From Owenia fusiformis (Eukaryota > Annelida > Polychaeta > Sabellida > Oweniidae): 64,000 nucleotides of DNA. A model generated the notes under the pieces. That model ran no database searches and had not been told where the DNA came from. It saw nothing but the letters and a program-made list of their open reading frames with translations. How positions within the stretch are numbered: the first letter of the stretch is position 1; each line of letters begins with the position of its first letter. Of this stretch, positions 35,701 through 41,700 are shown in pieces. The position numbers and the translations under genes are program-made. The stretch spans positions 3,880,001 to 3,944,000 of the forward strand of contig CAIIXF020000002.1 in the NCBI GenBank assembly GCA_903813345.2. Reading direction: 5' to 3'.

Positions 35701-38700
35701 AAGCTTGAAAAAAGTATATGTGAAAGCCGCATGACAAATGTGAAGAGCATGTACCTTTTATAACTACAGGGTGGTCCAAAAAAATTAACAAATGTACCAA
35801 TATTTTTGGACCACCCAGTAGAATAAATAAATACAAGAACACAAATGTGTACAAAATGTCCCCACCAATGGGTGATCCCGTCAAATGGTTATCCTAAAAA
35901 TGAGTAGACAAGACTTTACAGACACAATTTGAGGACAGAAAATCCAAAATGGCCACCTTAAAATTTACCCAGAATGCCAAAAAAATAGTCAGTTCTAGAT
36001 TTTCATACTAAGAACCACCCCTGAAAATTTGAAATTGATCCGTCACACAGTTAACCAGAAAACATGTTCACAAGACTTTACAGACAAGATTTGAGGACAG
36101 AAAATCCAAAATGGCTGCCTTGACATTTATCCAGAATGCCAAAAAACTAATCTGTTCTATATTTTCATACTAAGAATCATCCCTGAAAATTTGAAATTGA
36201 TCTACCAAACGGTTCACCTGGAAATGCGTATACAAGACTTTACAAACAAGATTTTAGGACAGAAAATCTAAAATGGCTGCCTTGACATTTACCCAGAATG
36301 CCCAAAAACAAATCAGATCTAGATTCTTATACTAAGAATCATCCCTGAAAATTTGAAATTGATCTACCAAAAGGTTCACCTAAAAACGCATAGACAAGAC
36401 TTTACGGGCAATATTTTAAGACGGAAAATCCAAAATGGCTGCCTTGACATTCATCCAGAATGCATAAAAACTAATCAGATCTAGATTTTCATACTAAGAA
36501 TCATCCCTGAAAATTTGAAATTGATCTACCAAACAGTTCACCTGGAAATGTGTAGACAAGACTTTACAGACAAGATTTTAGGACAGAAAATCCAAAATGG
36601 CTGCCTCGACATTTACCCAGAATGCCCAACAACTAATCAGATCTAGATTTTCATACTAAGAATCATCCCTGAAAATTTGAAATTGATCTACCAAACGGTC
36701 CTTCACCTAAAAACGCGTAGACAAGACTTTACGGGCAAGATTTTAAGACGGAAAATCCAAGATGGCTGCCTTGACATTCATCCAGAATGCATAAAAACTA
36801 ATCAGATCTAGATTTTCATACTAAGAATCATCCCTGAAAATTTGAAATTGATCTACCAAACAGTTCACCTGGAAATGTGTAGACAAGACTTTACAGACAA
36901 GATTTTAGGACAGAAAATCCAAAATGGCTGCCTCGACATTTACCCAGAATGCCCAACAACTAATCAGATCTAGATTTTCATACTAAGAATCATCCCTGAA
37001 AATTTGAAATTGATCTACCAAATGGTTCTTCACCTAAAAACGCGTAGACAAGACTTTACGGGCAAGATTTTAAGACGGAAAATCTAAAATGGCTGCCTTG
37101 GCATTTATCCAGAATGCCAAAAAATTAATCAGATCTAGATTTTCATACTGAGAATCATCCCTGAAAATTTCAAATTGATCTACCAAACGGTTCACCTGGA
37201 AATGTTAGGACAAAACTTTACAGACAAGATTTTAGGACGGAAAATCCAAAATGGCTGCCTTGACATTTACCCAGAATGCCCAAAAACTAATCAGATCCAG
37301 ATTTTCACACTGAGAATCATCCCTGAAAATTTGAAATTGATCTACCAAACGGTTGACCTGAAAATGCGTAGACAAGATTTTACAGACAAGATTTTAGGAT
37401 GGAAAATCCAAAATGGCTGCCTTGATATTTACCCAGAATGCCCAAAAACTAATCAGATCTAGATTTTTATACTAAGAATCATCCCTGGAAATTTGAAATT
37501 GATCTACCAAACGGTTCACCTGAAAACGCGTAGACAAGACTTTACAGACAAGATTTTAGGATGGAAAAATCCAAAATGGCCGACAATAAAAAAGCGATTA
37601 TGAGTTTTTGCTGATTACTTTTTACAAAATTATCACGTATTACTACTGTTAACAATAACATAGGCTTTTACAACAAAGTACTCCTGAAATTATTTATAAA
37701 GCTACTAAATAGTTAAAGTATGAAAACTGAAAAACACCATTCAATATGATACAAAGTATTATCGTGCGCTAACTTTTCTTAAAACATTCAAAATGGCTGA
37801 CATGACTGAGCTAAAAGGTCCAAAACCTAATCAGATCTAGAATGAAGTGAGCTGAACAAGATGTTAAAGTTTTAAAAGCACCTGTGAAGCTGTTTTTCTT
37901 AAAGTTTGCAGACAAGGATTTTAGCATTTGACTTCAAAACGGCCGACAGGAAGTAGGTATCGAGTTAATTTTTTTTCTTCCACATCTGTATGCACTCATA
38001 AGTTATTCCTGAAAATTTGAAGGTGATATCTGTAGCGGTTTTGGAGAAAACTGCCGGACGTACGGACAGATGGACAAACAGACAGACAGACGGACAGACG
38101 GACGGACGCGCCTAGGCCGACAATATGGCCCCACACTATGTGGTGGGGACATAAAAAATGCACTTTCACTTTACAGAAAAAAAGGTTTGTCTCCACCTCT
38201 TTAGATTTGTAGATTATATTTGGAAGTTTTAAATTATTTTATAAAACAGTTTTAACATACCCCCGGAATTGCATTTATGGTACTTAATCACATCAGGAAT
38301 TGTGGGAAACTTGAATTTCTCAGAAATGTAAAACATCCCATCGTTGAACTGCTTTATATGGTAATGTAATACCATGGTGCCGCTGTAATACATCCAACGT
38401 GGAATCAGTGATTGTGTTTCTAATCTAGCACAATCAATGTGTATGAATGTGCTTTAAGGCACAATCAATGTGCTGAAGCACAAGCAATTTACATATAAGC
38501 AGCCAAGAAGCAACCAAGTACTCAAAAGCAACATAAAGTGTTAAGCGCCAAAGTGGCTACAAGAAGCAAGCAGAATTATAAAGCAGAGAATGGTTGGTAC
38601 AATATGAGTATAAAAATCTTGTAAAGCACAAATTACATCATGCAAGAACAATCACTACCATGTACAGGCTCTTGCTGCAATTACAAACACCATGTGTGTT

Positions 38701-41700
38701 GATGTGTACTAAAGCAATAGAGGTAATAGGTGAAAGCTGTGTTAGATGCGTTACCTATAAATATAGAAAACAGAGAATCCAATAAAATAAAAAGAAATGA
38801 AACATAGAAAAATCAATTGAAAGAAGACAAAGGGATTAAAGGACACTAGTTGTAGGCTGATAAGTACAGCTACATGTTGACAAGTACAGCTAAAGGGTGA
38901 TAGCTAAATGGTGATAAGTACAGCTACATGTTGACAAGTACAGCTAAAGGGTGATAGCTGAAGGGTGATAAGTACAGCTATAGGGTGATAAGTACAGATA
39001 AAGGGTGATAGCTATAGGGTGATAAGTACAGCTATAGGGTGTTAAGTATAGCTACATGTTGACAAGTACAGCTAAAGGGTGATAGCTATATGGTGATAAG
39101 TACAGCTATAGGGTGTTAAGTATAGCTACATGTTGACAAGTACAGCTAAAGGGTGATAGCTATAGGGTGATAAGTACAGCTATAGGGTGTTAAGTATAGC
39201 TACATGTTGACAAGTACAGCTAAAGGGTGATAGCTATAGGGTGATAAGTACAGCTATAGGGTGTTAAGTATAGCTACATGTTGACAAGTACAGCTAAAGG
39301 GTGATAGCTATAGGGTGATAAGTACAGCTATAGGGTGTTAAGTATAGCTACATGTTGACAAGTACAGCTAAAGGGTGATAGCTATATGGTGATAAGTACA
39401 GCTACAGGGTGATTAGTACATTAGTAAGAGACTAACCTCCACAATTATGTTTGTGATAGAATATCAATTCCTGTATAGTCTCAAATGGATGTTTTTCTGC
39501 AAGATAGTACAGTCCATCTGCATTTGATTTAATGTGATAGTGACGTACATTGCCCTCCATTCTGAAGTTAAAAATAGCAATGATTGCAAGGGGTCTTAAT
39601 TTTTATGATGATTGGACCAAATGCAAAGAAAACCATTAAAACCGCCCCAAGTCGGATATATATGCTGCTAATTTTTGAGATATTAAGGACCTGCTCAGTA
39701 TCTCAGTATATGGACTGAAGTTAATAAGTATGGTTTATAAGCATATAAATCTATAATAGGAAATGAATGAATAAATAAATGAATTTTCAAGAGAAAGTAG
39801 GTCATTCTGAAAGGTTCACTATTTTAAAGGTTGAGAAAAATATCGATAAATTGGCCTGATCCCTTCTTTGGCACTACTAATAAAATTTTGTGCCGCACAC
39901 CCAAACACACGAGAGAAGCTAATAGAGAGTTATAATCACAAGCTGCCTTTTCTAATTAAGATGCATCGTGTAAGAGTAAGTAGCAAATACCTAATTTTAC
40001 AGGGTGTCCCTTATATACTGTAAATGATTTTATTTTCATTATTACTAAGTTCTCCATCAAACTAGGTTCTCCAAAGTATTAAAGCAAAAGACCCTGTAAC
40101 TTGTTAACCAGTTAACCAGTTGAGAACTTGGAAAAATGATGAAAAGATTGGATATTTTGACAATTTAGCTAAAATTGGTGACATCAGAACATGGCACTAA
40201 TGCCTAGGTCACATTTGCTCCAATTCATCGGCCGGTGTAAAAGGGTAGGAGGTCCTATCAAATTATGGTCCTACTCTCCATTGATTTATATGATGAGCTT
40301 AATACAACTCTTTCCCTCATTATCTTATACGCAATCAGGGCCAGTAAGGGCCGTTAAGAAAGGGGACCATAATCCCTGGGGGACCATGATTTCTTTCACA
40401 CCGGCACCCAGCCGATTGAGTAGTTTGTTCAAAACTGAAGGTCGAATCTCAAATTTTAGGTCAGATGTGAACTCCTGAGAACTTGTACATGATTTTAAAA
40501 AAAGTTTGGTCAATTTGAAGGAAGTTGAAATCAGTTTTGAACAAAATACTGCAATCGGCCAGCCGCCAGCCAATGAATTGGAGCAAATGTGACCTAGGCA
40601 TAAGTCATTGAGTTTCACTTGTGAATAAGAGGAGGAAATACTCCAGAATTCATAAATGAACCCATCTCTGTGTTAAATGGTTCATCTTTATTTGAAGATT
40701 ATCTATAAATTCCCCCCTTCCACTAAATGAAAGAACTGAATGAGAACTAATCTCCTATACGGATATGGGGCAACCTCCATTCCCCATACTCCTCCACCCC
40801 ATCCCGCCTTTATCAGAGAGAGGGCTGGGTACAGGGACTTGAATGAGACAAATAAGATCTTGTATAAGTGAATATTGAAATCATGACTGAGTTGAGTGAG
40901 TTGAGTGAGGTGAGTAAGTTGAGTGAGTTGAGTGAACTGAGTGGGTTGAGTGAGGTGAGTATGATAAACCATTCCAAGGAGATTAATAAAGCATTAATTT
41001 AAAACTAATTGAAGAAAACAAATTAAACTGTTGTTATGGCAATCATGGACTATGAGGAGCCAGGCCAAACATCAATGCGTCAAGTGTCACAATGTGTCAC
41101 GATGTGTCATGTATCACAATGTTTCATGTGTCAAGTGTCACAATTTGTCATGTATCACAATGTTCCATGTGTCAAGTGTCACAATGTGTCATGTATCACA
41201 ATGGTTCATGTGTCAAGTGTCACAATGTGTCATTTATCACAATGTTTCATGTGTCAAGTGTCACAATGTGTCATGTATCACAATGTTTCATGTGTCAAGT
41301 GTCACAATATGTCATGTATCACAATGATTCATGTGTCAAGTGTCACAATGTGTCACTGTGTTTCATGTATCACAATGATTCATGTGTCAAGTGTCACAAT
41401 GTGTCATTTATCACAATGTTTCATGTGTCAAGTGTCACAATATGTCATGTGTCACAATGATTCATGTGTCAAGTGTCACAATGTGTCACTGTGTTTCATG
41501 TATCACAATGATTCATGTGTCAAGTCTCACAATGTGTCATTTATCACAATGTTCATGTGTCAAGTGTCACAATGTGTCATGTATCACAATGTTTCATGTG
41601 TCAAGTGTCACAATTTGTCATGTATCACAATGTTCCATGTGTCAAGTGTCACAATGTGTCATGTATCACAATGGTTCATGTGTCAAGTGTCACAATGTGT

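What the first reader, a model, noticed from the sequence alone, without database searches (positions are those of the whole stretch)
38261..39561. Mutually exclusive exons for the C-terminal half of the SH2 domain in a Tec-family kinase
Seen: two exons (39437-39561 and 38261-38382) encode the same part of the SH2 domain, both phase 2 in and phase 1 out, both with intact splice sites and no stop. Over the last 36 residues they align without gaps with 20 identities. Using both or neither breaks the frame, so only one can be used per mRNA. Known: this half holds strand D, the EF loop, helix B and BG loop, which set SH2 preference C-terminal to the phosphotyrosine. Inference: one gene makes two kinases with the same pTyr pocket (Arg287) but different ligand choice. 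I know of no such switch in Tec kinases.
Basis: partly seen in the sequence, partly recalled or inferred. Interest (0 to 1): 0.88.

Follow-up and report, generated by a model that had tools for sequence, protein, structure and literature searches.

The report
Swappable half-SH2 exons in Tec kinase
A single worm gene for a signalling enzyme (a Tec kinase) carries two alternative, diverged versions of the exon for one half of its phosphotyrosine-reading SH2 domain; their frames allow only one of them per full-length message, so the gene probably makes two versions of the enzyme, but no RNA evidence was available.

Summary
Exons A (39437-39561, 125 nt) and B (38261-38382, 122 nt), minus strand, both encode the C-terminal half of the SH2 domain of a Tec-family kinase. 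Both are phase 2 in, phase 1 out, with AG/GT sites and no stop. N+A+C and N+B+C stay open; skipping both or using both shifts the frame into stops. In the 498-Mb genome each exon's best match besides itself is the other (E 3e-7 to 4e-7). It is the only Tec kinase that my searches found there. Long neutral decay of B is unlikely: third codon positions are saturated, positions 1 and 2 are not, B is intact, and A/B differences avoid columns invariant in Tec kinases. I conclude tandem-duplicated mutually exclusive exons, enforced by frame and probably NMD. FYN is the known tyrosine-kinase precedent. Expression, exclusivity in RNA and conservation in relatives could not be tested.

The parts
39437..39561 (-). 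Exon A: C-terminal half of SH2 domain (version A), 125 nt, phase 2 in / 1 out
   Evidence: (Pfam SH2 29.6 bits on the exon alone)
38261..38382 (-). Exon B: C-terminal half of SH2 domain (version B), 122 nt, phase 2 in / 1 out
   Evidence: (20.7 bits alone, cut-off 21; 77.8 bits spliced)
43358..43497 (-). Upstream exon (its SH2 part): N-terminal half of SH2 with the pTyr arginine (FIVRDS); its 5' boundary was not set
34331..34464 (-). Downstream exon: end of SH2 (LVVRL), linker, start of kinase (GRGQFG); 3' boundary by eye
38383..39436 (-). Intron between A and B (1054 nt), about half of it minisatellite (54- and 74-bp units, 38853-39418); too long for steric exclusion
46684..46953 (-). ORF holding the BTK zinc motif (Tec-family mark; PF00779 30.0 bits, cut-off 24); not exon boundaries
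45851..46005 (-). First SH3 exon (ALYDYQG...)
   Evidence: read by eye
43966..44549 (-). ORFs with the rest of SH3 ([32 protein letters not shown]); not exon boundaries
   Evidence: read by eye
54233..54544 (-). ORF with start of PH domain ([15 protein letters not shown]...; 24.5 bits on a fragment, cut-off 25.1)
29651..33706 (-). Kinase exons, as ORFs: VAVK (33587-33706), HRDLAARN and DFG (31559-31693), APPEV (30332-30538), C-lobe; not exon boundaries

Best explanation
A and B are tandem-duplicated, mutually exclusive exons of the one Tec-family kinase gene found in this animal (probably Owenia fusiformis). Shown: homology, matching phases and splice sites, frame breakage when both or neither is used, signs of coding constraint on both. 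Inferred: each productive mRNA takes A or B; messages with both or neither are truncated and removed by NMD; A, with the better polypyrimidine tract, is the default and B the regulated choice; the two kinases share the SH2 fold and phosphotyrosine pocket but differ in the βC-βD turn, DE loop, EF/βF and αB surface, which tunes secondary peptide contacts and/or SH2 contacts with SH3 or kinase.
For:: coordinates, splice sites, frames, stops on skip or double use; both spliced SH2 forms match Tec-family SH2 domains best (A: TXK 1.4e-31, BTK 2.1e-30; B: ITK 5.6e-28, BTK 2.3e-26); all 10 Tec entries listed in each call rank above the best non-Tec SH2 (61.3 and 61.7 bits); reciprocal best matches in 498 Mb; the other two BTK-motif hits do not read as Tec kinases; among 72 of 72 scored SH2 candidates I saw no other pair of C-half hits side by side without an N-half between (read from the table); identity at codon positions 1/2/3 is 23, 24, 8 of 36; pS saturated, dN 0.44; a neutral-B model fits worse (2dlnL 6.5, p 0.011); simulated neutral copies that kept frame, sites, length and similarity: 1.35% of 4000 at t 0.2, 0 of 4000 at each of t 0.35, 0.5, 0.75, 1.0. 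A and B differ at 20 of 41 columns but at only 2 of 13 columns invariant in A plus four human Tec kinases (P 0.004), and those two are A/S and L/V; of 15 columns invariant in the four human ones A keeps 13 and B 12.
Against: No transcript, proteome or orthologue data. Exon B has the weaker acceptor (pyrimidines 0.55 of 20 versus 0.70). At the 20 differing columns A matches some human Tec at 13, B at 3, so B is the faster or more relaxed copy. A recent silencing of B is not excluded: neutral copies still intact are 35% at 0.05 and 4% at 0.15 substitutions/site with an assumed indel rate of 0.1 per substitution, but 65% and 29% with substitutions alone. No RNA pairing was found between flanking stretches of up to 500 nt, so how the choice is made is open. 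The 15-row tree resolves nothing.
Confidence: 0.8

Rival explanations
1. The exon choice switches SH2 ligand preference C-terminal to pTyr.
For: The exchanged half holds strand D, EF loop, helix B and the start of the BG loop; EF1 and EF/BG loop residues can switch specificity in SH2 domains (PMC12470777 and PMC12878756, passages seen). EF1 is A in exon A and S in B; H-P versus F-K follows.
Against: βD5 Y, αB8 Y, αB9 H and the Leu from the shared next exon are unchanged; βE4 L/I and EF1 A/S are mild. The mapping rests on the conserved F anchor and recalled Src/SHP2 numbering.
Confidence: 0.3
2. The choice alters intramolecular regulation or partner contacts (SH2-kinase, SH2-SH3, dimerisation) through the αB face, DE loop and EF/βF, with the peptide preference kept.
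For: Most of the changes lie outside the groove positions that I could map. The βE/EF/αB/BG surface serves as an SH2 dimer interface in Grb7 (PMC2131756, passages).
Against: Indirect; no structure was modelled.
Confidence: 0.4
3. Exon B is a silent relic of an old exon duplication, only lately released from selection.
For: Weaker acceptor, faster divergence.
Against: No stop, frame and splice sites kept, conserved core kept; a long neutral life is unlikely, a short one is not excluded.
Confidence: 0.12
4. Exon B (or A) ends transcripts early or is used together with the other to make a kinase-less, truncated adaptor form or an NMD switch.
For: A+B shifts the frame soon after SH2-A; read-through of B's donor gives a short tail before a stop.
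Against: B has a normal donor and the right exit phase for the next exon, which a terminal exon would not need.
Confidence: 0.06

Closest known systems
FYN exon pair (FynB/FynT; exons 7A/7B by recall)
   Same: Tandem-duplicated mutually exclusive exons in a cytoplasmic tyrosine kinase; isoforms identical outside one homologous stretch (PMC9741552, passages seen)
   Different: FYN's pair covers the SH2-kinase linker and the kinase N-lobe; here the pair covers the C-half of the SH2 domain itself, in a Tec-family kinase
Tandem duplicated exon substitutions / MXEs in general (236 annotated in human, PMC9741552)
   Same: Meets the sequence criteria: similar length, same phases, compatible sites, homology (PMC3228551, passages); 377 of 629 human MXE clusters (60%) hold exons not divisible by three, as here (PMC5740500, passages)
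   Different: No RNA validation here; the site (half of an SH2 domain) was not met in the passages I read
Vertebrate Tec kinases (BTK, ITK, TXK, BMX compared here)
   Same: PH-BTK-SH3-SH2-kinase order (by recall for the family); SH2 variation between relatives
   Different: Vertebrates vary SH2 by gene duplication; here one gene would do so by exon duplication. Exon B is not closer to ITK than A is (25 and 26 of 49, shared next-exon columns included)
FES exon 11 skipping (human)
   Same: Splicing that touches an SH2 exon of a cytoplasmic tyrosine kinase (PMC9132324, passages)
   Different: Exon loss, not exchange of homologous exons

Membership tests
Mutually exclusive tandem-duplicated exons | Similar length, differing by whole codons | tested here: met
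   125 and 122 nt
Mutually exclusive tandem-duplicated exons | Compatible splice sites and same phases | tested here: met
   AG/GT, phase 2 in, 1 out
Mutually exclusive tandem-duplicated exons | Homologous products, no stop | tested here: met
Mutually exclusive tandem-duplicated exons | Joint use or joint skipping is non-productive | tested here: met
   Frameshift and stops
Mutually exclusive tandem-duplicated exons | Junction reads bridging each exon, none in-frame joining both | not testable with these tools
   No transcriptome held
Tec-family tyrosine kinase | BTK zinc motif after PH | tested here: met
   PF00779 30.0 bits, cut-off 24
Tec-family tyrosine kinase | PH domain | tested here: inconclusive
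   24.5 bits on a first-exon fragment, cut-off 25.1; later PH pieces read by eye
Tec-family tyrosine kinase | SH2 most like Tec kinases | tested here: met
Tec-family tyrosine kinase | Tyrosine kinase domain | tested here: met
   PF07714 over cut-off at C2:3911565-3911792 (69 bits; the stretch runs past the exon and holds 2 stops) and 3909932-3910096 (56.9 bits, no stop), both in the window; catalytic motifs read by eye
Tec-family tyrosine kinase | SH3 domain | not tested
   No model was run; ALYDYQG, WW and [10 protein letters not shown] read by eye
FYN-type exon pair | Pair covers SH2-kinase linker and kinase N-lobe | tested here: not met
   Pair covers SH2 C-half

The most novel reading that the evidence does not exclude
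One Tec gene makes two kinases with the same phosphotyrosine pocket but different SH2 recognition or regulatory surfaces, chosen by cell type: a single-gene counterpart of the diversification that vertebrates reached with several Tec paralogues.
Probability: 0.4. Interest if true: 0.75.

Novelty: new member of a known kind. Interest (0 to 1): 0.52.

Why it matters
If used, it would be a natural exchange of half an SH2 domain inside one kinase: two proteins that differ at about 20 residues of SH2 alone, a clean test of which SH2 surface residues set partner choice or autoinhibition in Tec kinases, and a case of diversification by exon rather than by gene duplication.

Tried and rejected
Relatives: one scan of genome contigs with alignment A1 (31 stretches matched the pattern) gave 1 locus, L015 in a Chlorobiota MAG, whose similarity is one stretch of 14-21 residues (E 3e-5 and 5e-5); of eight other query stretches of the gene the best reached only E 0.029 there; rejected as chance. 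One scan of viral contigs (51 stretches) gave none. No eukaryotic collection was on hand, and G000 has no relatives.

Mechanism of exclusion: steric (intron of 1054 nt, too long); U12 (donors GTATTT, GTTAGT, GTATGT look ordinary, by eye); RNA pairing between five flanking stretches of 468-500 nt (10 pairs, 30 shuffles each, lowest z -1.4; the rest of the introns was not tested). A TGCTT cluster upstream of B looked like a Muscleblind-type signal (recalled): 9 in 300 nt, reached by 0 of 1000 shuffles and by 5 of 1274 windows. But I picked the motif after seeing the sequence, and judged as the best 5-mer of its window (z 12.8) it lies between the 75th (9.6) and 90th (13.3) percentile of windows; not used as evidence.

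Introns N-A and B-C are both exactly 3796 nt; the only similarity found is 21 nt in inverted orientation; taken as coincidence. The phylogeny of 15 SH2 halves is unresolved, 0 of 12 branches supported; of 14 loci fetched for it I left out 5 (L002, L003, L008, L009, L014) without a strict rule: three matched the Tec profile poorly (E 0.26-0.36), but L002 (0.0011) and L014 (3e-5) were left out while L001 (0.0057) was kept. A first identity table includes 8 columns of the shared next exon; its other output covered one locus only because I misread the file layout, and one search repeated it. COX1 was not found at E 1e-20, so the species rests on genome size and scaffold number. Rfam at gathering threshold: no match in the window.

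Literature: ten searches. Those aimed at SH2 exon exchange or Tec splicing listed 0, 0, 11, 2, 1 and 0 papers; of these I saw passages of two (PMC9132324, PMC9741552) and only titles and abstract starts of the rest. No listed title or passage describes exchange of SH2 exons in a Tec kinase. The library holds open-licence PMC papers only, so this does not show that none exists.
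Full report
What is there. On the minus strand, a gene with PH start, BTK zinc motif, SH3, SH2 and tyrosine kinase exons runs from about 54500 to 29650 (partly read by eye). The SH2 domain is split after strand C (strand names by recall): exon N (ends 43358) carries WYHKNI...FIVRDSS...; the next exon is present twice, A (39437-39561) and B (38261-38382); the following exon starts at 34464 with LVVRL and the linker to GRGQFG. 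Both copies fit the same slot: phase 2 in, phase 1 out, AG and GT at the ends, no stop. N+A+C and N+B+C read through; N+C and N+A+B break into stops. So a full-length kinase must contain exactly one of them, unless an unseen exon restores the frame.

Is the similarity real. The two products score 105 with BLOSUM62 without gaps, against -32 +- 14 for shuffles. In the whole genome (498 Mb) exon A finds itself, then B (E 3.9e-7), then one Src-like exon at E 0.6; exon B finds itself, then A (3.1e-7), then three at E 0.2 or more. Spliced, both give Tec-type SH2 domains: A-form best TXK and BTK (Tec entries 97-112 bits, best non-Tec 61), B-form best ITK and BTK (83-100 bits, best non-Tec 62) in the 60 rows shown of 211 and 201. 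By identity B is not specially ITK-like: A-ITK 26 of 49, B-ITK 25 of 49, with the shared next-exon columns in both counts.

Is B under constraint. Between A and B the third codon positions agree at 8 of 36, no better than chance, while positions 1 and 2 agree at 23 and 24 (Fisher p 3e-5). Synonymous sites are saturated, so the duplication is old; dN is 0.44. A model in which B drifted freely fits worse (p 0.011). Of 4000 simulated neutral copies 1.35% kept frame, sites, length and similarity at t 0.2, and none at each of t 0.35, 0.5, 0.75 and 1.0; the neutral model's own best fit is t 0.62. Of 41 columns A and B differ at 20, but at only 2 of the 13 that are invariant in A and four human Tec kinases (P 0.004), and both changes are mild (A/S, L/V). 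B is nevertheless the more derived copy: at the 20 differing columns A matches a human Tec at 13 and B at 3. A late silencing cannot be excluded: starting from B as it is, 12% of copies are still intact after 0.1 substitutions per site with indels assumed at 0.1 per substitution, 43% without indels.

One Tec kinase found. BTK-motif search gave 3 hits of 39 candidates scored: this gene, a C12 exon whose reading frame looks PH-like (RasGAP type by recall) and a C9 frame of another kind; the SH2 gene 36 kb from the C9 hit is Grb2-like (by eye). Exon N has no close second copy (itself 5e-27, then 9e-5, 4e-4, 6e-4; two of these three I read, through L012 and L016, and both are Grb2-like; the C10 one I did not read). 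A Tec kinase without BTK motif and with a diverged SH2 is not excluded; the kinase table was capped (133 of 754 candidates scored). A broad SH2 search scored all of its 72 candidates; reading the table, I saw no other gene with two C-half matches side by side without an N-half between them. The table is a lower bound.

How it would work. Frame incompatibility makes joint use or joint skipping non-productive; such messages would be NMD targets (inference). In human 377 MXE clusters (60%) hold exons not divisible by three (PMC5740500, passages; the passage was cut after that sentence's start). The intron between A and B is too long for steric exclusion, the sites look like ordinary U2 type, and I found no pairing between the tested flanks. 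A has the more pyrimidine-rich acceptor, so A as default and B as regulated choice is my guess.

What changes in the protein. With the conserved F after the EF loop as anchor and EF1, βE4 and αB9 as used in PMC12878756 (passages), the groove residues βD5 Y, αB9 H and the Leu of the shared next exon are the same, βE4 is L or I, EF1 is A or S (A in all four human Tec SH2 domains seen). The larger changes are at the βC-βD turn (RMEGNVR / SGTMVL), DE loop (SNADGL / QFNDGM), end of EF loop and βF (KHPFE / KFKFP), αB face (QELIF / PDVIK) and before BG (HNC / CNS). I therefore give the pure ligand switch 0.3 and a change of intramolecular or partner contacts 0.4; they may both apply.

Comparison. Tandem-duplicated mutually exclusive exons are well known; FYN is the close precedent in a tyrosine kinase, but its pair lies in the linker and kinase N-lobe (PMC9741552, passages). 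In the six paper searches aimed at this no listed title or passage that I saw describes such a pair in an SH2 domain half or a Tec kinase. The sequence criteria of PMC3228551 (passages) are met; the RNA criterion is untested. I file it as a new member of a known kind.

Species. The total is 498 Mb in 525 contigs, most hits lie on contigs C1 to C12, and the eight of these whose length I saw are 32-62 Mb; Owenia fusiformis has 505.8 Mb in 12 chromosome-scale scaffolds (PMC9977687, passages). This is inference; no marker gene confirmed it.

Noticed in passing
45285-45914 (minus strand, from the end of SH3 exon 45851-46005 onward): A 103/210-bp minisatellite repeats the last ~60 nt of the SH3 exon together with its donor site: after the true exon end there are 5 more copies, 4 with AAAGGTAAG and 1 with AAAGATAAG. 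Exon-derived tandem array with surplus donor sites.
   Followed up: partly
28000-56000: Introns of this gene are packed with minisatellites of many periods (51, 52, 74, 162/327, 41, 34 bp and more); Tandem Repeats Finder gave 41 rows, some overlapping.
   Followed up: no
introns 39562-43357 and 34465-38260: Introns on both sides of the exon pair are exactly 3796 nt each, without notable sequence similarity; probably coincidence.
   Followed up: yes
38383-38682: TGCTT occurs 9 times in the 300 nt upstream of exon B (5 of 1274 windows hold as many), but similar local word excesses are common in this window.
   Followed up: yes
G000:C3:9318054-9326309 (outside the window): A multi-SH2 locus with three N-half and two C-half SH2 matches; two N-halves (9326175 and 9323434) stand side by side with no C-half match between: a missed exon or an alternative N-half.
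   Followed up: no
62323-62496: Minus-strand ORF resembling the C-terminal exon of a short-chain dehydrogenase ([14 protein letters not shown]), by eye.
   Followed up: no
20101-20973: Long minus-strand ORF with coiled-coil look, perhaps ORF1 of a non-LTR retroelement; by eye.
   Followed up: no
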